A DNA stretch of 64,000 nucleotides. It comes from Azospirillum sp. TSA2s (GTDB lineage: Bacteria > Pseudomonadota > Alphaproteobacteria > Azospirillales > Azospirillaceae). The notes below the pieces were generated by a model. That model saw nothing but the letters and a program-made list of their open reading frames with translations, did not search any database and had not been told where the DNA came from. Made by a program: the position numbers and the translations under genes. Below, in pieces: positions 23,828-37,245 of this stretch. The stretch lies in contig NZ_CP039645.1 in assembly GCF_004923315.1 (NCBI RefSeq), forward strand, positions 601,001 to 665,000, in the 5' to 3' direction. Every line of letters begins with the position of its first letter. Positions within the stretch are counted from its first letter, which is position 1.

Positions 23828-24814
23828 TCACATCACGCACTCGCAGGCGCCTTCCCGTTCCATCACCGGGGCCGTCTGCTTTTCGCACAGATCGCCCGGC
23901 AGCTCCTCGCCCTGGAGCAGGGGGCAGCGTTCGAACAGTTCGGCCAGCCAGTCGACGAAGACCCGCACCTTCGGCGACAGGTGCCGGTTGTGCGGGTAGA
24001 CGGCGGAGATCGGGATGCGGGGCGGCCGCCAGTCGCGCAGAATCTCACGCAGGGCGCCGCTGCGCAGATGCGGCAGCACCATGAAGCGGGCGGGCTGCAG
24101 GATGCCCTGCCCTTCCAGGCCGCAGGTGACATAGGCGTCGGCGTCGTTGACGGAGACGACGCCCTTCATGGCGACCTCCTCCACCGCGCCGTCGCGCTGG
24201 AAGCAGAACTCCATGTTCCGCCCGGTGCGGTTGCTGAAATAATTCACCGCGATGTGGCGCTCCAAATCCTCGATCGTCTTCGGCTCGCCATGCTCGGCGA
24301 GATAGGCCGGGGTGGCGCAGGTGATCTGCTGCATGGCGCCGATGCGCCGCGCCAGCAGGCTGGAATCCGCCAGCTCGCCGATGCGGACCACGCAATCCAC
24401 CCCCTCCTGCACCAGATCGATGGGACGGTCGCCCAGACCCAGCATCAGCTCGATGTCCGGGTATTTGGCGTGGAATTCGTGGATCGAGGGGATGATGACC
24501 AGCCGGCCGATGGAACCCGGCATGTCCACCCGCAGCCGGCCGCGCGGCGTCTTGCGCGCGCTGGTGAAGGTGGATTCGATCTCGTCGATTTCCGACAGGA
24601 TGCGGGTCGCCCCCTCCAGATAGGCGGCGCCGTCCAGCGTCAGGCTGAGCTTCCGGGTGGTGCGCTGGAGCAGGCGCACGCCCAGCGCCGCCTCCAGATT
24701 CTGGACCGTCGTCGTCACCGAGGCGCGCGGCAGCCCCAGCGTTTCCGCCGCCTTGGTGAAGCTGTTCGCTTCGACCACCCGGATGAAGACGCGCATCGCA
24801 TGCAGCTTGTCCAT
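23828..24814 (-). CDS. LysR-family transcriptional regulator (CrgA-like)
   Basis: A 328-residue LysR regulator with an N-terminal HTH (SFTKAAETLGLPRASVTTTVQ) and the RLLQRTTRKLSLT wing typical of the CrgA/PA2220-like subgroup. The effector domain contains the segment MPGSIGRLVIIPSIHEFHAKYP (only its family character is noted). The C-terminus ends in Cys-rich EGACECVM. It is convergent with the sugar operon and has no divergent partner, so its target is not evident. Start ATG 24814 (MDKLHAMRVF) is preferred to ATG 24838. Confidence 0.88.
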   Translation of the reverse strand: MDKLHAMRVFIRVVEANSFTKAAETLGLPRASVTTTVQNLEAALGVRLLQRTTRKLSLTLDGAAYLEGATRILSEIDEIESTFTSARKTPRGRLRVDMPGSIGRLVIIPSIHEFHAKYPDIELMLGLGDRPIDLVQEGVDCVVRIGELADSSLLARRIGAMQQITCATPAYLAEHGEPKTIEDLERHIAVNYFSNRTGRNMEFCFQRDGAVEEVAMKGVVSVNDADAYVTCGLEGQGILQPARFMVLPHLRSGALREILRDWRPPRIPISAVYPHNRHLSPKVRVFVDWLAELFERCPLLQGEELPGDLCEKQTAPVMEREGACECVM

Positions 24815-24913
24815 ACGGATCCCGTCCTTTCCAACCACGGCCAGCGCCGGGCGCGGCCCCCATCAAGCGCGGAGAGTGTCCGCCGAAGATAGGCGAATAG
24901 CAACCGGCAGAGT

Positions 24914-28843: not shown

Positions 28844-30355
28844 GTGTTTGCTCACCTGGCTGGCGGCAGCTGAGCCTTTAAGCGACGACGAAGGTGCCGT
28901 CGATGAGGTTGCGGATGGCGGTCCAGGCGGACTGGCCTTGGCGGCGCGCGGTTCCGGTGACGGAACGATAGCCTGCGTGGATGCCCGGCCCCCAGTCGGA
29001 GCGGAAGCCGTTCGTCACCTTGCGGAAGATCACGGACGGGCGGATTTCCTGCTCACTGACGTTGTTGGTCGGTGGCACGCGGCGGTCGCTGAGAAAGACA
29101 AAGAACTTGCCGCGCCACGCCTTGATCTGGCGCTGCAGTTCGCGGCCAGCCGGATGGGCAGCGGGGACACCGAGCAGCGCATCGAGGCGGCGCTCGGCCT
29201 TGGCGGCGTAAGCGGCGAGCGTGCTGTCCTTCAACTCCGGTCTTCGCTTGCCGACACGGATGGCCCAGCGCAGATGATCCCGGAGTTTCGGCGCCACCAC
29301 GCTGTCGCCGCAGTCGATGGCGTACTGAACGTCGCGTAAGACATGGGCCAGGCAGACCTGATGAACTTGCCCCAGCTCCTGCTGGCCGGCGTAGCGGTCA
29401 GAGACCCACACCTCGGGTCGATGATCCCCCAGAATGTCGGCGGCGACCGCCCGTCCCCGGCTGGGGGCAATGGTGTGCAGCACAGCCTCATCGGACTGGA
29501 ACACCCACTGCCAGTGGGTCACGCCGTCAACCCGGGTTGTGGTTTCGTCCGAGGCGATGACGGGAGCGGTCAGGAGCTTGGTCTTGATCGCCGCGCAGGC
29601 AGTATCGAACGCCGACCCCATGCGGCGGAAGGCATTGGCGATGGCGCCTTCGGAGATGCTCAGCCCAAACACCTCCTTCAGCAGGCGCGACAGCCGCTCG
29701 AAGCCGACATGATGGCTGTGATGCAGGTAGGCCAGCAGCGAGCGGATCCCTGGGCCGAAGGGCGTTCCCGGCGGCATGGCGGCGGGCGGTTCAGCCCGAT
29801 AGCGCCGTCCACACGAACCGCAGCGGCCGCCGAACAGCTCCACCCGCGTCACCACCGGGCGGACTTCGGGCAGGTCAATGTGGTCGTAGCGATGCCGGCA
29901 GCGCTGTCCCGCTGCCAACAGCGCCGTTTGGCAATGCGGGCATTCCTCGGCGAGACGGCGCTCGGTGCGATCAGGGTCGGGCGTGAGCGGCCGCGCGACA
30001 CCGGGACGGGACGGCCGCGGTTTGCGCCCCCGCTTCGCCTTGCCGGTCTTGCCCCCGGGGCCATCCTGGGACGGCGGGATGTGCGAGTTCGCCGAGGTCT
30101 TCTTCGGCTTGCCGACCAAGGCTTCCAGTTCGGCAATCCGTGCGGCCATGCGCTCGATCAGCGCCGCCTGCTCGATTAGCAGGGCGTCCTTCTCGGCGTC
30201 GCTCAGGCGATAACGCGGCGGAACTGTCATCCCGCCTTTGACTCACGTCAGCCCCCCACGACGCAACACCGGATCGTCACCCCACCCCCAATGCGCGCAA
30301 CCCCGAGCCGGCTCGAGCCGGCGTCACGCGCTCAGCCAGCCAGGTAAGCAAATAC
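28844..30355 (-). mobile_element. Complete IS66-family insertion sequence, 1512 bp
   Basis: The element is bounded by 21-bp terminal inverted repeats. The left end is GTGTTTGCTCACCTGGCTGG... (28844-28864) and the right end (30335-30355, read inward) is GTATTTGCTTACCTGGCTGG..., with 19 of 21 positions identical. Perfect 8-bp duplications CTGAGAGT flank it. A single transposase gene fills it, without the tnpA/tnpB accessory genes of longer IS66 members. Intact ends, duplications and transposase indicate a recent and possibly still mobile insertion. Confidence 0.95.
28878..30230 (-). CDS. tnpC: IS66-family transposase (tnpC type)
   Basis: A 450-residue DDE transposase. It begins with a short coiled-coil/leucine-rich segment (ALIERMAARIAELEALVGKP), then the basic linker and a zinc-finger IS66 domain (CPHCQTALL and CGSCGRRY). 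The catalytic core includes VIASDETTTRVDG with the first Asp and VWVSDRYAGQQ with the second. The late segment FLSDRRVPPTNNVSEQEIRP contains the conserved NN-xx-E region. The frame is intact. Confidence 0.95.
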   Translation of the reverse strand: MTVPPRYRLSDAEKDALLIEQAALIERMAARIAELEALVGKPKKTSANSHIPPSQDGPGGKTGKAKRGRKPRPSRPGVARPLTPDPDRTERRLAEECPHCQTALLAAGQRCRHRYDHIDLPEVRPVVTRVELFGGRCGSCGRRYRAEPPAAMPPGTPFGPGIRSLLAYLHHSHHVGFERLSRLLKEVFGLSISEGAIANAFRRMGSAFDTACAAIKTKLLTAPVIASDETTTRVDGVTHWQWVFQSDEAVLHTIAPSRGRAVAADILGDHRPEVWVSDRYAGQQELGQVHQVCLAHVLRDVQYAIDCGDSVVAPKLRDHLRWAIRVGKRRPELKDSTLAAYAAKAERRLDALLGVPAAHPAGRELQRQIKAWRGKFFVFLSDRRVPPTNNVSEQEIRPSVIFRKVTNGFRSDWGPGIHAGYRSVTGTARRQGQSAWTAIRNLIDGTFVVA

Positions 30356-30366: not shown

Positions 30367-30825
30367 ATGAGGAAAGAAGATGCACGTCATTCTATTGAAG
30401 TACTGCACGCTATTCAGAGAATGTCCAATAGGCTATCCGCGTTTCAGTTCATTCTCGCCCCAAACAGCCAGCCAAAGCTGACAATACAAGGTGTCGAGAT
30501 CTCTGTGCGCGCCGACATGCTGGTCCATGGATCGAGTCGGAGCCAGCAGCAGATAGGGGCAGCAATTCTGAGAATGACTCAGGACGACGCGGACACGGAC
30601 TCTGCGAGAGCGCGGCGTCAGGAAATGGGCTACTGCGTCGCCGCATTGGCGCGGCTTCACATTGAGCAGAACATCCAATCAGAACGTGTCCCGTCCAATC
30701 GGCTTTGCATGTCGATAGACGTTCAGCATGGGGAGGTGTTCCAAGCCCCTAACAGCAACGTCCGTAGGGTGAATGACATTGAGGCCGCTTGCCGGTTTAT
30801 AGCGGCAATGTGGGATCAGGTCTGA
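30367..30825 (+). pseudogene. 3' part of the IS-interrupted gene (hypothetical protein)
   Basis: A frame of 152 codons from ATG 30367 to TGA 30823-30825 lies immediately right of the insertion sequence. The product (MRKEDARHSIEVLHAIQRM at the start, MGYCVAALARLHIEQN in the middle, IEAACRFIAAMWDQV at the end) is largely helical and matches no family I recognise. It is in frame with the open sequence left of the element once one duplication is collapsed. It could still be translated from its own ATG, since only upstream sequence was displaced. Confidence 0.55.
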
Positions 30826-30994
30826 CCCGATGCGGCGGCAGCGCCGCCTCGAAGGCGGTAACATTGTCATGGCTGTAACCGCAAGCCATGAAGAATTTGG
30901 CCTTCGGGCCTCCTTCGGGGTGATCGGGTACCAGCAGGTGATGGGTGAGCTTCTTGAGGTCCAGCGTCGCCTTGTCGGCGTCAGGCACGTGCAT
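30797..30994 (-). pseudogene. Truncated DUF6883 protein
   Basis: The 65-codon frame starts MHVPDADKATLDLKKL and continues THHLLVPDHPEGGPKAKFF, the N-terminal half of DUF6883 proteins, which are usually about 110 residues. After about residue 50 the family-like sequence stops and the frame reads into DNA complementary to the end of the neighbouring plus-strand gene. It therefore appears to be a 3'-truncated remnant. It overlaps the DUF4926 gene by 14 nt, the common DUF4926-DUF6883 order. Confidence 0.65.
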
Positions 30995-31244
30995 GTCGAA
31001 TGGCGTCCGGCATAACGGTCGCGACGGTGTGGAAGGGCTTCGCGAACTCGACCTCGTAGGCGGCGCCACCCCGGTACACGCCGACGACGGTCCCCATCGA
31101 CCCGGCAGGCAGCACGCCGTCCTCGGTCTCAACCGGCTTGGACAGCGCCACCCGTGTGAGTTCCTCGATCGGCTCGTGCGTTCCGCTGTCGGTCGAGCGA
31201 CTGTGCGGAGTCCACATGAAGCGCCCCATGGGCTCGGACATCAT
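30981..31244 (-). CDS. DUF4926 domain protein
   Basis: An 87-residue protein. The second half is a DUF4926 domain: ELTRVALSKPVETEDG, then LPAGSMGTVVGVY and GGAAYEVEF, a small SH3-like beta barrel. The ATG at 31244 has a GGGGAGG ribosome site. DUF4926 and DUF6883 genes travel together in accessory regions and have been suggested to be toxin/antitoxin or immunity-like, but their function is not established. Here the partner is truncated. Confidence 0.75.
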   Translation of the reverse strand: MMSEPMGRFMWTPHSRSTDSGTHEPIEELTRVALSKPVETEDGVLPAGSMGTVVGVYRGGAAYEVEFAKPFHTVATVMPDAIRHARA

Positions 31245-31764: not shown

Positions 31765-32664
31765 ATGACCACCGCCACCCCGCCGCGATTGTTCGTCCCG
31801 GCTGAATTCTGTTCCCAGCCGCAGCGGCTTTATCCCACCCGGGCGCTTGCACATTATTGCTCTTGCCGCATTGCAGGAGGGGCGCCAGGGCGCCGGATCG
31901 GGATGGAACGTTCACGCACGTCGCTGAGGGTGGAGGGCCGCGAGGTCCCGCTGTGCCTGTATCGGCCGGCGCTTCCCGGGCCGCTGCCGGGCGTGCTGTA
32001 TTTCCATGGCGGCGGCTTCACCTCCGGGTCGGTCGAGGATGTCGAGGTGCCGGCGATGGCGCTGGCGGAGAGCATTCCGGCGCTGGTGGTGGCGGTCGGC
32101 TATGCGCTGGCTCCCGCCCATCCCTTTCCCGCCGCCATCGAGGATGCCCATGCCGCGGCCCTCTGGCTGGCGGAGCGGGCCGGGCCGCTGGGCGTCGCCG
32201 GGCATGATGCCGGCGGGCATGTCGCGGTGTCGCTCACCCTGCTCGCCCGCGACCGCGGCGGGCCGGAGATCGCGGCGCAGGCGCTGCTCGGGCCGATGCT
32301 CGACCCGAGTTTGACGCGCGTGGGGGACGGCGAAGGCAGCGTGACAGACTGCGCGCGCTGTTACCGCGCCTATCTGCCGGAGGCGGCGCTGCGGCTGCAT
32401 CCCTATGCGGCGCCCCTGGAATCGCGCCGGCTCGGCCGGCTACCGCCGATCATGATCGCCACGGCGCAGAACGACGTGCTGCGGCCGGAGGCGGAAAGCT
32501 ATGCCGCCCGGCTGATCGACGCCGGGGTGCCGACCGAGGTCACCCGCTTTGCCGGCGTCAGCCATGCCGGCCTCGCCCAACACGCGCCGGCGCTGGCCGC
32601 CGCCGCCGATTTCTTCCGGCGCCGCCTGACCGGCGCCCATCCCGACACTTCGAGCCACAGGTAA
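31765..32664 (+). CDS. Alpha/beta hydrolase-fold protein lacking the catalytic serine
   Basis: About 299 residues of the hormone-sensitive-lipase-like group (Abhydrolase_3). The oxyanion motif HGGGF is present at about residues 81-85. The nucleophile elbow, normally GDSAGG, reads GHDAGG (about 147-152), so Asp148 occupies the serine position. The acid region is QNDVLRPE and the late histidine is in GVSHAG. Ester hydrolysis by the usual mechanism is therefore doubtful. It stands 5 nt before the efflux adaptor gene, likely co-transcribed. The start is uncertain (ATG 31765 or ATG 31903). Confidence 0.8.
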   Translation: MTTATPPRLFVPAEFCSQPQRLYPTRALAHYCSCRIAGGAPGRRIGMERSRTSLRVEGREVPLCLYRPALPGPLPGVLYFHGGGFTSGSVEDVEVPAMALAESIPALVVAVGYALAPAHPFPAAIEDAHAAALWLAERAGPLGVAGHDAGGHVAVSLTLLARDRGGPEIAAQALLGPMLDPSLTRVGDGEGSVTDCARCYRAYLPEAALRLHPYAAPLESRRLGRLPPIMIATAQNDVLRPEAESYAARLIDAGVPTEVTRFAGVSHAGLAQHAPALAAAADFFRRRLTGAHPDTSSHR

Positions 32665-32669
32665 AACCC

Positions 32670-33839
32670 ATGTCCCGCAAGACACTTTCCCTACTGATCG
32701 CGGCCGGCGTGTCCGTGGCGGCACTGACCGGCGCCGTCACTCTGCGCAGCCCGGCCGAGGCACAAACGGCCTCCGAAACTCCCGCCCCGCCGCCGGCCGA
32801 GGTGGATGTCGCCACCGTGCTGGCCCGGCCGGTGACGGACTGGCAGTCCTATTCCGGGCGGCTGGAGGCGGTGGACCGCGTCGATATCCGGCCGCAGGTG
32901 CCCGGCACCATCGTCGCCGTGCATTTCCGCAACGGCGCGCTGGTGAAGAAGGGCGACGTGCTGTTCACCATCGACCCCCGCCCCTATGAGGCGGAGGTGG
33001 CGCGGGCCGAGGCGCAGGTCGCGGCGGCGCAGGCGCGGGTGCGGCTGACCGCCGCCGACCTCGACCGCGCGCAGAAGCTGGTGCGCGACGACACCATCTC
33101 GCGCAGCACCATGGACCAGAAGGACAATGCCGCCCGCGAGGCGACCGCCAACCTGAAGGCGGCGCAGGCGGCGCTGGAGATCGCGCGGCTCAATCTCGGC
33201 TACACGCGGGTGACGGCGCCGGTGTCGGGCCGGGTGTCGCGGGCGGAACGGACGGTCGGCAATGTGGTGGCCGCCGGTGCCGCCGCGGAGCCGCTGACGA
33301 CTCTGGTGTCGGAATCGCCGATCTACGCCTCCTTCGACGTCGATGAGCAGACCTATCTGCGCCACATCGCGCCGATGCGGGATTCCGGGACGATCCCGGT
33401 CCGGCTCGGCCTTGCCAACGAGGAGGATTACTCGCGCGACGGCATGGTGGAGTATGTGGACAACCGGCTGGACAGCGTGTCCGGCACCATCCGCGTGCGC
33501 GCCCGCTTCGACAATGCCGACGGCGTGCTGGTGCCGGGGCTGTATGCACGGGTGAAGGTGGGGGGCACCAAGCCCTATGACGCGCTGCTGGTCGATGACC
33601 GCGCCATCGGTACCGACCAGGACAAGAAATTCGTCCTGGTGGTGACGCAGGAGAACAAGGTGGAGTACCGGCCGGTGAAGCTCGGCGCGCTGCAGAACGG
33701 GCTGCGCGTGGTGACCGACGGGCTGGCGGCCGGCGAGCGCGTGGTCGTCAACGGCACCCAGCACGCCCGGCCGGGCATGGCGGTCACGCCGAAGATGGTC
33801 GCCATGGGGACTGAGAAGACCCAGACGGCGGCGCGGTAA
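32670..33839 (+). CDS. RND efflux periplasmic adaptor (MexE-like)
   Basis: A membrane-fusion protein of 389 residues linking an RND pump to the outer membrane. An N-terminal signal sequence (MSRKTLSLLIAAGVSVAALT) is followed by a lipoyl-type segment (VDIRPQVPGTIVAVHFRNGA), a long coiled-coil hairpin rich in Ala/Glu/Gln (about 100-165), and a beta-barrel with ASFDVDEQTYLRH. No lipobox Cys is obvious. The pump gene follows after a large palindromic repeat. No outer-membrane factor gene is present in the window. Confidence 0.93.
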   Translation: MSRKTLSLLIAAGVSVAALTGAVTLRSPAEAQTASETPAPPPAEVDVATVLARPVTDWQSYSGRLEAVDRVDIRPQVPGTIVAVHFRNGALVKKGDVLFTIDPRPYEAEVARAEAQVAAAQARVRLTAADLDRAQKLVRDDTISRSTMDQKDNAAREATANLKAAQAALEIARLNLGYTRVTAPVSGRVSRAERTVGNVVAAGAAAEPLTTLVSESPIYASFDVDEQTYLRHIAPMRDSGTIPVRLGLANEEDYSRDGMVEYVDNRLDSVSGTIRVRARFDNADGVLVPGLYARVKVGGTKPYDALLVDDRAIGTDQDKKFVLVVTQENKVEYRPVKLGALQNGLRVVTDGLAAGERVVVNGTQHARPGMAVTPKMVAMGTEKTQTAAR

Positions 33840-34056: not shown

Positions 34057-37000
34057 ATGAACATCTCGAAATTCTTCATCGACCGGCCGATCTTTGCCGG
34101 CGTGCTGTCGGTGGCGCTGTTCCTGGCGGGGGCCATCGCGGTGTTCCGCCTGCCGATTTCCGAATATCCGGAGGTGGTGCCGCCGTCCGTCGTGGTGCGC
34201 GCGCAGTTCCCCGGCGCCAACCCCAAGGTGATCGCCGAGACCGTCGCCTCCCCGCTGGAGGAGCAGATCAACGGCGTCGAAGGCATGCTCTATATGCAGT
34301 CGCAGGCGAACAGCGACGGCAACATGGCGCTGACCGTGACCTTCAAGCTGGGCACCGACGCGGACAAGGCGCAGCAACTGGTGCAGAACCGCGTGGCGCA
34401 GGCGATGCCGCGGCTGCCGGCCGACGTGCAGCGGCTCGGAGTCACCACGGTCAAGAGTTCGCCGACGCTGACCATGGTCGTGCATCTGCTGTCGCCCAAC
34501 GACCGCTATGACATGACGTACCTGCGCAACTACGCGGTATTGAACGTCAAGGACCGGCTGACCCGCATCGCCGGTGTCGGCGAGGTGCAGGTGTGGGGCG
34601 CCGGCGACTATGCGATGCGGGTGTGGCTCGACCCCGGCAAGGTGGCGCAGCGCGGGCTGACCGCCACCGACGTGGTCAATGCCATCCGCGAGCAGAATGT
34701 CCAGGTGGCGGCCGGCGTGATCGGCGCCTCGCCCTCGCTGCCCGACGTGCCGATGCAGCTGTCGATCAATGCGCGCGGCCGGCTGAAAACCGCCGACGAG
34801 TTCGGCGACATCGTGCTGAAGACCGGCGAGGACGGCGGCGTCACCCGCCTGCGCGACGTGGCGCGGGTGGAGCTGGCGGCGGCGCAATATGGGCTGCGCT
34901 CTCTGCTCGACAACAAGCCGGCGGTGGCGCTCGGCATCACCCAGACGCCGGACGCCAACGCGCTCGCCATCTCCGACGAGGTGCGCAAGGTGATGGCGGA
35001 GCTGAAGGGCGACATGCCGGAGGGGGTGGATTATTCCATCGTCTACGACCCGACGCAGTTCGTCCGCTCCTCCATCGAGGCGGTGGTGCACACGCTGCTG
35101 GAGGCGGTGGCGCTGGTCGTGCTGGTGGTGATCATCTTCCTGCAGACCTGGCGGGCGTCGATCATTCCGCTGCTGGCGGTGCCGATCTCCATCGTCGGCA
35201 CCTTCTCGCTGCTGCTGGCCTTCGGCTTCTCGATCAACGCGCTGTCGCTGTTCGGCATGGTGCTGGCCATCGGCATCGTCGTCGACGACGCCATCGTCGT
35301 GGTCGAGAATGTGGAGCGCAACATCGCGTCCGGCCTGTCGGCCCGCGACGCCACCATCCGCGCCATGCAGGAGGTCAGCGGGCCGATCATCGCGATTGCG
35401 CTGACGCTGGTCGCCGTCTTCGTGCCGCTGGCGGCGATGACCGGCCTGACCGGCGAGTTCTACAAGCAGTTCGCGATGACCATCGCGATCTCCACCGTGA
35501 TTTCCGCCTTCAACTCGCTGACGCTGTCGCCGGCCCTGGCGGCGGTGCTGCTGCGCGGCCATGACGAGCCGCAGGACTGGCTGACCCGTGCGATGAACCG
35601 GGTGTTCGGCGGCTTCTTCCGGCTGTTCAACCGGGTGTTCCACCGGGCGTCGGAGGGCTATGGCCGCGGTGTCGGCGGGGTGGTGCGGCGCAAGGGCGTG
35701 ATGCTGGCGGTCTATGCGCTGCTGATCGGCGCCACGGTGCTGCTCGGCCGCACGGTGCCGTCGGGCTTCGTGCCGATGCAGGACAAGGAGTATCTGATCA
35801 GCTTCGCCCAGCTTCCCAACGGCGCCTCGCTCGACCGGACGGAGGCGGTGATCCGCGAGATGACCGACATCGCGCTGAAGCGCCCCGGCGTGCAGAGCGC
35901 GGTGGCCTTTCCGGGGCTGTCGGTCAACGGCTTCACCAACAGCTCCAGCGCCGGCATCGTCTTCGTCACGCTGAAGCCCTTTGCCGAGCGCAAGGATCCG
36001 TCGCTGTCGGCCGGGGCCATCGCCATGGATTTGCAGAAGCGCTATGCCGGGCTGAAGGAGGCCTTCGTCGCCATCTTCCCGCCGCCGCCGGTGATGGGGC
36101 TGGGGCAGCTGGGCGGCTTCAAGATGCAGTTGGAGGACCGCGGGAACCTGGGCTATGAGGCGCTGAGCGGCGCGGTGAACGCCTTCGTCAAGCGGGCGGC
36201 GCAGACGCCGGAACTGGGGCCGACCTTCTCCGCCTACCAGATCAACGTGCCGCAGCTGGACGTCGATCTCGACCGGGTGAAGGCCAAGCAGCTGGGCGTC
36301 AATGTCGCCGAGGTGTTCGACACCATGCAGATCTATCTGGGGTCGCTGTACGTCAACGACTTCAACGCCTTCGGCCGCGTCTATCAGGTGCGGGTGCAGG
36401 CCGACGCGCCGTTCCGCGATACCGCCGACGACATCGGGCTGCTGAAGACCCGCAACGCGGCGGGGACCATGGTGCCGCTGTCGTCGCTGGTGACCGTGCA
36501 GCCGGGATACGGGCCGGAGATGGTGGTGCGCTACAACGGCTTCACCGCCGCCGACGTCAATGGCGGGCCGGCGCCCGGCTTCTCCTCGGGACAGGCGGAA
36601 GCGGCGGCGGAGCGCATCGCGGCGGAGGTTCTGCCGCGCGGCGTGAAGCTGGAATGGACCGACCTGACCTATCAGAAGATCCTGGTCGGCAATGCCGGGC
36701 TGTGGGTCTTCCCGATCAGTGTGCTGCTGGTCTTCCTGGTGCTGGCGGCGCAATATGAGAGCCTGACGCTGCCGCTCGCCATCCTGCTGATCGTGCCGAT
36801 GAGCGTGCTGTCGGCGCTGTTCGGGGTGTGGCTGACGGGGGGCGACAACAACATCTTCACGCAGATCGGCTTCATGGTGCTGGTCGGGCTGTCGGCGAAG
36901 AACGCCATCCTAATCGTCGAGTTCGCCCGCGAGCTGGAGCATGAGGGGCGCAGCGTGGTGCAGGCGGCCATCGAGGCGAGCCGGCTGCGGTTGCGGCCGA

Positions 37001-37245
37001 TCCTGATGACCTCCATCGCCTTCATCATGGGCGTGGTGCCGCTGGTCACCTCCACTGGCGCGGGGGCCGAGATGCGGCATGCGATGGGTGTCGCGGTGTT
37101 CGCCGGCATGATCGGCGTGACGCTGTTCGGTCTGGTGCTGACCCCGGTGTTCTACGTGCTGCTGCGCAAGCTGGCCGGGGCGGAGCGTCGGGCGGAAGCG
37201 CCGGCGCATGGCGAGGAGCCGCCGGCGGAGTGGAAGATGGGCTGA
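34057..37245 (+). CDS. RND multidrug efflux transporter, inner-membrane pump (MexF/OqxB-like)
   Basis: A 1062-residue HAE1-family proton-driven drug exporter. The N-terminus MNISKFFIDRPIFAGVLSV is standard. The twelve-helix layout includes the TM4 proton-relay aspartates in GIVVDDAIVVVENVER, the porter-domain segment FPGANPKVIAETVASPLEEQ (in part) and the late helix motif GLSAKNAILIVEFA. ATG 34057 begins the conserved N-terminus; the frame upstream is only the palindromic repeat. Substrates cannot be deduced. Confidence 0.95.
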   Translation: MNISKFFIDRPIFAGVLSVALFLAGAIAVFRLPISEYPEVVPPSVVVRAQFPGANPKVIAETVASPLEEQINGVEGMLYMQSQANSDGNMALTVTFKLGTDADKAQQLVQNRVAQAMPRLPADVQRLGVTTVKSSPTLTMVVHLLSPNDRYDMTYLRNYAVLNVKDRLTRIAGVGEVQVWGAGDYAMRVWLDPGKVAQRGLTATDVVNAIREQNVQVAAGVIGASPSLPDVPMQLSINARGRLKTADEFGDIVLKTGEDGGVTRLRDVARVELAAAQYGLRSLLDNKPAVALGITQTPDANALAISDEVRKVMAELKGDMPEGVDYSIVYDPTQFVRSSIEAVVHTLLEAVALVVLVVIIFLQTWRASIIPLLAVPISIVGTFSLLLAFGFSINALSLFGMVLAIGIVVDDAIVVVENVERNIASGLSARDATIRAMQEVSGPIIAIALTLVAVFVPLAAMTGLTGEFYKQFAMTIAISTVISAFNSLTLSPALAAVLLRGHDEPQDWLTRAMNRVFGGFFRLFNRVFHRASEGYGRGVGGVVRRKGVMLAVYALLIGATVLLGRTVPSGFVPMQDKEYLISFAQLPNGASLDRTEAVIREMTDIALKRPGVQSAVAFPGLSVNGFTNSSSAGIVFVTLKPFAERKDPSLSAGAIAMDLQKRYAGLKEAFVAIFPPPPVMGLGQLGGFKMQLEDRGNLGYEALSGAVNAFVKRAAQTPELGPTFSAYQINVPQLDVDLDRVKAKQLGVNVAEVFDTMQIYLGSLYVNDFNAFGRVYQVRVQADAPFRDTADDIGLLKTRNAAGTMVPLSSLVTVQPGYGPEMVVRYNGFTAADVNGGPAPGFSSGQAEAAAERIAAEVLPRGVKLEWTDLTYQKILVGNAGLWVFPISVLLVFLVLAAQYESLTLPLAILLIVPMSVLSALFGVWLTGGDNNIFTQIGFMVLVGLSAKNAILIVEFARELEHEGRSVVQAAIEASRLRLRPILMTSIAFIMGVVPLVTSTGAGAEMRHAMGVAVFAGMIGVTLFGLVLTPVFYVLLRKLAGAERRAEAPAHGEEPPAEWKMG

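What the first reader, a model, noticed from the sequence alone, without database searches (positions are those of the whole stretch)
31765..32664. Hydrolase-fold protein with Asp in the nucleophile position, linked to an RND pump
GHDAGG replaces the usual GDSAGG while HGGGF and the late His remain. Asp nucleophiles occur in dehalogenases and epoxide hydrolases but not in the HSL-like group. The gene is 5 nt upstream of an efflux adaptor, suggesting a drug-modifying or ligand-sensing role.
Basis: partly seen in the sequence, partly recalled or inferred. Interest (0 to 1): 0.5.

Follow-up and report, generated by a model that had tools for sequence, protein, structure and literature searches.

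The report
Serine-less esterase relative beside efflux pumps
Next to a drug-efflux pump this soil bacterium keeps an esterase-shaped protein whose catalytic serine is replaced by an acid, and the same serine-less protein sits beside related pumps in many other bacteria, so a gene labelled 'lipase' in known resistance operons is probably not an ordinary lipase.

Summary
The window (Azospirillum, close to A. oryzae) encodes a PF07859 (HSL-like) alpha/beta-hydrolase with GHDAGG where esterases have GxSxG, 5 nt before a MexE-type RND adaptor and its permease. It is the Azospirillum counterpart of LlpE, the unexplained 'lipase-like' first gene of the Burkholderia ceoAB/bpeEF operons. Of 249 distinct homologues read, 161 have Asp, Glu, Cys or Gln at the elbow: 157 lie directly before an RND adaptor, 2 beside a displaced or opposite-strand pump, 1 at a contig end, 1 without pump. 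Of 86 with Ser, none has an adaptor. A LysR gene precedes 135 of the 161 and none of the 86. On a quick tree made without the elbow and His columns the two sets lie on either side of one branch. Asp/Cys members mostly keep the triad His (117 of 120), Glu/Gln members mostly lack it (38 of 39). So the family lost the serine-esterase mechanism once and stayed with LysR-controlled pumps. Most likely it binds, or modifies without hydrolysis, a pump inducer or substrate; an Asp-nucleophile enzyme remains possible for the Asp type.

The parts
31903..32664 (+). LlpE-type alpha/beta-hydrolase-fold protein, 253 aa, acid elbow
32200..32217 (+). GHDAGG nucleophile elbow; Asp102 codon 32206-32208
32005..32019 (+). 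HGGGF oxyanion-hole motif
32473..32475 (+). Asp191, position of the catalytic acid
32563..32565 (+). His221, position of the catalytic His
32305..32307 (+). Pro135, part of the pump-linked signature (LDP)
   Evidence: 98% of 64 pump-linked rows, 0% of 59 Ser rows
32398..32430 (+). His166-Pro-Tyr168 ... Arg176 signature
   Evidence: each 100% of 64 pump-linked rows; 10%, 29%, 5% of 59 Ser rows
31765..31902 (+).
   Evidence: no ATG and a 1-nt shift in 5 relatives
32670..33839 (+). RND periplasmic adaptor, MexE/OqxA-like
   Evidence: TIGR01730 285.9 bits over its cut-off; best score NF045904 MexE 396.5, below its cut-off of 714
34057..37245 (+). RND permease, MexF/OqxB-like
   Evidence: NF000282 1474.6 bits over its cut-off of 1250
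23828..24838 (-). LysR regulator, likely the cognate one, displaced from the operon
   Evidence: 76% identical to the LysR next to the hydrolase in A. brasilense L130
28878..30230 (-). IS66-type transposase between the LysR gene and the operon
   Evidence: PF03050 160 bits

Best explanation
The gene is the Azospirillum LlpE: probably cytoplasmic (no signal peptide to the eye; no predictor was run), an HSL-fold protein without the N-terminal cap, from one family of serine-less 'acid-elbow' proteins encoded first in LysR-controlled RND pump operons. Shown here: loss of the serine, acid (or Cys/Gln) in its place across the family, linkage to pump and LysR, one branch on the tree, purifying selection, confident fold model. 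Inferred: it is not a serine esterase; the retained pocket binds a small molecule connected with the pump (inducer or natural substrate), and the protein acts by binding, sequestering or non-hydrolytic conversion of that molecule, tuning LysR-controlled pump expression or supplying the pump. Glu members without His cannot use a Ser/Asp-His-Asp triad, so a function shared by all members is easiest to see as binding or acid-base chemistry.
For: Elbow and linkage (249 distinct homologues): 157 of 161 D/E/C/Q members have the adaptor directly downstream on the same strand. The other four: L269 ends at a contig edge; L294 has adaptor and permease further down (L316); L267 has adaptor and permease on the opposite strand about 2.3 kb away (L353); L263 has no pump in the 18-kb stretch read (L354). 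0 of 86 Ser members have an adaptor (81 with at least 1 kb downstream, 5 shorter). LysR within 2.5 kb upstream in 135 of 161, against 0 of 86 Ser loci, 56 of them with enough flank. Tree of 106 rows, elbow and His columns removed: Ser against D/E/C/Q needs 1 change, support 98. His166, Tyr168, Arg176 invariant in 64 pump-linked rows. His kept in 117 of 120 D/C rows, absent in 38 of 39 E/Q rows (2 cut rows set aside). dN/dS 0.04-0.17 between the window and six relatives. Confident HSL folds for the Asp type (pLDDT 96.1) and a Glu-type member (92.1). The B. cenocepacia gene before ceoA/ceoB also reads GHDAGG. L263 keeps LysR without a pump, and Mycetohabitans keeps a full-length hydrolase beside broken pump genes, so the protein may matter apart from transport. 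PMC5587915 (passages) reports induction without BpeT and BpeS and favours an additional regulatory factor.
Against: No ligand, regulator contact or activity is shown anywhere. The Asp type keeps His, acid and HGGGF, which looks catalytic. The association is one evolutionary event kept by descent, so the counts overstate independent evidence, and most loci were found with acid-elbow queries. Elbow-His covariation rests on 3-4 independent pairs (not significant). Other pairs have higher dN/dS (0.30-0.39 for four more distant pairs, by a cruder method). The llpE deletion had no effect on efflux of known antibiotics (PMC4396416, passages); llpE was PCR-negative in two B. cenocepacia sequence types (PMC5461758, passages), and a frameshift was seen in one B. 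pseudomallei isolate, which the authors say may reflect start misassignment (PMC3352902, passages).
Confidence: 0.5

Rival explanations
1. Asp-type members are true hydrolases with an Asp-His-Asp triad, as in haloalkane dehalogenases and epoxide hydrolases: Asp102 attacks, His221 activates water, and the HGGGF loop stabilises the intermediate. They detoxify a pump substrate.
For: Of 117 Asp rows with the region readable, 114 keep His and 116 keep the acid. Cys in 11 of 11 loci read from one genus (g376), with His and acid kept, would also be a workable nucleophile.
Against: Glu and Gln relatives, nearly all without His, keep the same operon and signature; within the Asp clade two of three Glu members (L121, L265) lack His, L107 keeps it. 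The model lacks the N-terminal cap of HSL enzymes. Only PF07859 and PF20434 match at E up to 0.001.
Confidence: 0.2
2. A non-hydrolytic enzyme (dehydratase, lyase, cyclase, decarboxylase) in which the elbow acid is a general acid/base, as plant carboxylesterase-like enzymes became cyclases.
For: Precedent: carboxylesterase-like [4+2] cyclases evolved from an ancestral carboxylesterase (PMC10873640, abstract read). Pocket and oxyanion motif kept; acid tolerated as D or E.
Against: No substrate known; no recurring metabolic gene was noticed beside the operon in the ten loci whose ORFs I looked over, but this was by eye.
Confidence: 0.2
3. Ordinary esterase with an unusual motif that still hydrolyses esters through the acid or a neighbouring residue.
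For: Structure closest to esterases: EstDL136 Z 35.8, rmsd 1.7, 245 aligned, tied with EstE1, EST2 and others.
Against: No Ser at the elbow in any pump-linked member read; PDB titles show Ser-to-Ala mutants of this fold in complex with substrate (4ob6, 8ze9; titles only).
Confidence: 0.07
4. A decaying remnant carried along by the operon.
For: Triad residues vary between lineages.
Against: dN/dS 0.04-0.17 among close relatives, confident fold, invariant signature across Alpha- and Betaproteobacteria.
Confidence: 0.03

Closest known systems
LlpE of Burkholderia (ceoR-llpE-ceoA-ceoB-opcM; bpeT, llpE-bpeE-bpeF-oprC)
   Same: 54-56% identical sequence, same elbow GHDAGG, same place before RND adaptor and permease, LysR regulator in the neighbourhood
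   Different: No outer-membrane factor gene follows the permease in the window (a LacI-type gene does); LysR displaced about 7 kb; published LlpE is described as lipase/carboxyl esterase, and the missing Ser is not mentioned in the passages I read
HSL-family esterases (PF07859), e.g. EstDL136, EST2, EstE1
   Same: Fold, HGGG oxyanion motif, positions of acid and His
   Different: No nucleophile Ser; no N-terminal cap; pump-linked signature Pro135, His166, Tyr168, Arg176
Asp-nucleophile alpha/beta hydrolases (haloalkane dehalogenase, epoxide hydrolase; recalled)
   Same: Asp at the elbow with His and a second acid in the Asp type
   Different: Glu/Cys/Gln accepted in relatives; no evidence of halide or epoxide chemistry; no direct comparison made
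GID1 gibberellin receptor (recalled, not tested)
   Same: HSL fold turned from catalysis to ligand sensing
   Different: The plant receptor keeps Ser and lacks the His (recalled); here the Ser is lost

Membership tests
HSL-like alpha/beta hydrolase fold (PF07859) | Profile score over Pfam cut-off | tested here: met
   168 bits against 25
Functional HSL serine esterase | Ser in GxSxG | tested here: not met
   GHDAGG; aligned with the Ser of solved esterases
Functional HSL serine esterase | HGGG oxyanion motif, catalytic Asp and His | tested here: met
   HGGGF, Asp191, His221
Functional HSL serine esterase | Esterase activity | not testable with these tools
   no assay
LipP1 lipase (NF058653) | Score over cut-off 350 | tested here: not met
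   181 bits
Chloramphenicol hydrolase (NF033149) | Score over cut-off 500 | tested here: not met
   116 bits
LlpE | Kinship with the gene before ceoAB | tested here: met
   55.6% identity over 79%; Burkholderiaceae and Azospirillaceae Asp-type rows share a starred branch
LlpE | First gene before MexE-like adaptor and permease | tested here: met
   5 nt before the adaptor
LlpE | Cognate LysR regulator adjacent | tested here: inconclusive
   76% identical LysR, but about 7 kb away with IS66 between
LlpE | Co-transcription with the pump genes | not testable with these tools
   the 5-nt gap suggests it
Asp-nucleophile hydrolases | Asp-His-acid triad at the expected positions | tested here: met
   (by alignment and secondary structure; no distances)
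Asp-nucleophile hydrolases | Membership in their sequence families | tested here: inconclusive
   only PF07859 and PF20434 at E up to 0.001; no direct comparison made

The most novel reading that the evidence does not exclude
LlpE proteins are a bacterial counterpart of the plant GID1 receptors: esterases that became ligand sensors when the nucleophile was lost, and they are the missing substrate-sensing factor of LysR-controlled MexEF/BpeEF/OqxAB-type pumps across Alpha- and Betaproteobacteria, passing the signal to LysR or to the pump through the invariant His166/Tyr168/Arg176 residues.
Probability: 0.2. Interest if true: 0.8.

Novelty: new variant of a known kind. Interest (0 to 1): 0.6.

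Why it matters
llpE is the first gene of Burkholderia operons for trimethoprim and chloramphenicol efflux and has been called lipase-like since at least 2006 (PMC1557404, PMC5587915, passages) without a known role; a review calls its pump association unique and says it warrants study (PMC4396416, passages). That every pump-linked member read here lacks the esterase nucleophile, and that the module (LysR, serine-less esterase fold, RND adaptor, permease) occurs in Azospirillaceae, Rhizobiaceae, Burkholderiaceae and Comamonadaceae, redirects the question from lipids to ligand binding and gives exact residues to test.

Tried and rejected
Chloramphenicol hydrolase or LipP1 membership: rejected, scores far below cut-offs. 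Alternative Ser at the elbow: none. Pseudogene: rejected by dN/dS (Yang-Nielsen method, falling back to Nei-Gojobori where it failed, so values are not strictly comparable). Conserved LysR-type operator: the dyad CGGCTG-N11-CAGCCG at 31799-31821 lies in the conserved leader, but no such dyad was seen in the upstream stretches of the other lineages tried. Independent-pairs test of elbow against His: 3-4 pairs, no power. Pocket distances could not be measured because model coordinates are not given. No Asp-nucleophile enzyme was named among the 50 rows shown for either model, which does not exclude kinship.

Paper searches. Of 23 papers holding 'llpE' (20 listed, many using the letters for something else) I read passages of 8; none of these passages mentions the missing Ser. 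The original description (JCI 2004, recalled) is not held, so I do not claim that the point is unpublished.

Full report
What is there. Pfam gives Abhydrolase_3 with 168 bits. Downstream are a MexE/OqxA-like adaptor and a MexF/OqxB-like permease. The nearest named match is Azospirillum oryzae A2P, 98% identical. The start at 31765 is doubtful: of ten close relatives tried, five gave an alignable upstream stretch, and all five lack that ATG and are shifted by one base before 31903, where the ATG is conserved; NCBI starts the B510 gene at the same place. In the closest relative, L084, the longer frame is open as in the window, so the point is not closed. From 31903 the protein has 253 aa and begins where the catalytic domain of HSL enzymes begins: residue 1 of the model is aligned to residues 43-75 of the 50 solved chains shown, so it seems to lack the N-terminal cap.

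What it is. In the plasmid collection the best matches outside Azospirillum are Mycetohabitans (60-62% identity) and Burkholderia and Caballeronia (54-56%). The B. cenocepacia match lies directly before genes that RGI calls ceoA and ceoB (98.8% and 99.1%), which makes it llpE of the salicylate-inducible efflux operon. It too reads GHDAGG. LlpE is described as putative lipase/carboxyl esterase, present in all annotated operons of bpeE-bpeF-oprC orthologues and not required for pump function (PMC4396416, passages; PMC5587915, passages), and as periplasmic lipase-like (PMC1557404, passages). The Azospirillum protein shows no signal peptide to the eye; no predictor was run. In a root-colonisation study a gene named llpE was among the most induced in roots (log2FC 15.2; PMC10719396, passages).

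How far it extends. With P0001 or with alignments of Asp-type (A1) and Glu-type (A2) members I searched 45 genomes of the genus, 82 of the order, 398 of the phylum twice, 399 of the order of G405, 200 of its family (141 of 200 matched at E 1e-58) and 289 of the window's class. In the genus 42 of 45 genomes had some homologue at E 1e-10, and 35 of 45, the window's own included, had one of at least 59% identity. Loci were then read for elbow and neighbours; of 315 loci held, 313 had a match, and these reduce to 249 distinct hydrolases by residues 20-200 of the domain. Asp 119 (116 with the adaptor directly downstream, 2 without, 1 at a contig end), Glu 38 (37, 1 without), Cys 3 (3), Gln 1 (1), Gly 2 (0), Ser 86 (0; 5 with under 1 kb of flank). 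Wider reading of the exceptions: the Glu case L294 has adaptor and permease further down (L316); L267 has adaptor and permease on the opposite strand, about 2.3 kb off (L353); L263 has none in the 18-kb stretch read but keeps LysR (L354). Twenty further loci picked as LlpE hits gave 8 Cys and 12 Asp, 19 with adaptor and 1 at a contig end. All 11 loci read from one genus (g376) have Cys. LysR lies within 2.5 kb upstream in 135 of 161 D/E/C/Q loci (103 divergent, 32 same strand; 16 with too little flank, 10 without) and in 0 of 86 Ser loci (56 with enough flank). Named Glu-type examples are Shinella sp. HZN7, Comamonas antarctica and Cupriavidus metallidurans CH34, all GEEAGG; for the first two the record annotates LysR, hydrolase, adaptor and permease in a row, for the third only the permease is listed.

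One family. A tree of 106 rows (70 non-Ser rows, among them 2 Gly, and 36 of the 59 Ser rows of the reduced set), made after removing the elbow and His columns, separates the Ser rows (98% SH-aLRT; the two Gly rows lie among them) from all 68 D/E/C/Q rows with one change; with Asp/Glu alone as the label it needs three, because the Cys and Gln rows lie inside. It is a quick tree without bootstrap, and unrooted. The counts above are therefore not independent events: the serine was exchanged once and the product stayed with the pump. Fourteen positions mark the 64 pump-linked rows against the 59 Ser rows; the strongest are Pro135 (98% to 0%), His166 (100% to 10%), Tyr168 (100% to 29%) and Arg176 (100% to 5%); Phe237 is also invariant, but most Ser rows have a gap there.

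Two types. Asp and Cys rows keep the catalytic His in 117 of 120, Glu and Gln rows lack it in 38 of 39 (two cut rows set aside). On the tree the elbow changes between Asp and Glu 4 times and His 6 times, giving 3-4 independent pairs, so the covariation is only suggestive. The Asp-type and Glu-type models are both confident HSL folds (pLDDT 96.1 and 92.1). The best solved match of both is EstDL136, a chloramphenicol-metabolising esterase, tied with others (Z 35.8 and 35.7).

How it may work. Shown: no serine nucleophile, predicted intact fold, selection, linkage. Inferred: a function that survives D, E, C and Q at the elbow and the loss of His is more likely binding or acid-base chemistry than covalent hydrolysis. 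The LysR partner, and persistence of the gene where the pump is broken (Mycetohabitans) or absent (L263), point to handling of the inducer. The report that bpeEF-oprC is still induced without BpeT and BpeS leaves room for such a factor; LlpE was not tested for it in the passages read. Against: the deletion has no effect on efflux of known antibiotics, and Asp-type members might still be Asp-nucleophile enzymes.

In the window itself the LysR orthologue (76% identity to the one beside the hydrolase in A. brasilense) lies at 23828-24838 on the minus strand, about 7 kb off, with a permease gene and an IS66 transposase between; in Azospirillum sp. B510 an IS256 transposase lies upstream of the hydrolase.

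Noticed in passing
31782-31902: The leader before the likely start is strongly conserved DNA in six Azospirillum loci and holds a dyad CGGCTG-N11-CAGCCG at 31799-31821 in the window, a possible LysR-type operator; not seen in other lineages tried.
   Followed up: partly
L126:5324-8248: Mycetohabitans rhizoxinica has a full-length llpE-like gene but only fragments of the RND adaptor and a short permease.
   Followed up: partly
L254, L255, L256, L333-L340: One genus of the Burkholderia family group (g376) has Cys at the elbow with His and acid kept: 11 of 11 loci read.
   Followed up: partly
L136, L141, L150, L155, L168, L169, L270: Glu-type proteins carry Cys-containing stretches (such as ECAC, CPC, CTAC) near the C-terminus, close to where the lost His loop would be; a metal or disulphide site is possible.
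   Followed up: no
L353:831-9721: An acid-elbow gene with divergent LysR lies beside an RND adaptor and permease on the opposite strand, a different layout of the same parts.
   Followed up: partly
L263, L354:7615-9647: An acid-elbow gene keeps its LysR gene but has no RND pump in the 18-kb stretch read.
   Followed up: partly
window 28878-30230: IS66-type transposase between the displaced LysR gene and the pump operon.
   Followed up: no
window 30797-31132: Small DUF6883 protein on the minus strand upstream of the operon.
   Followed up: no
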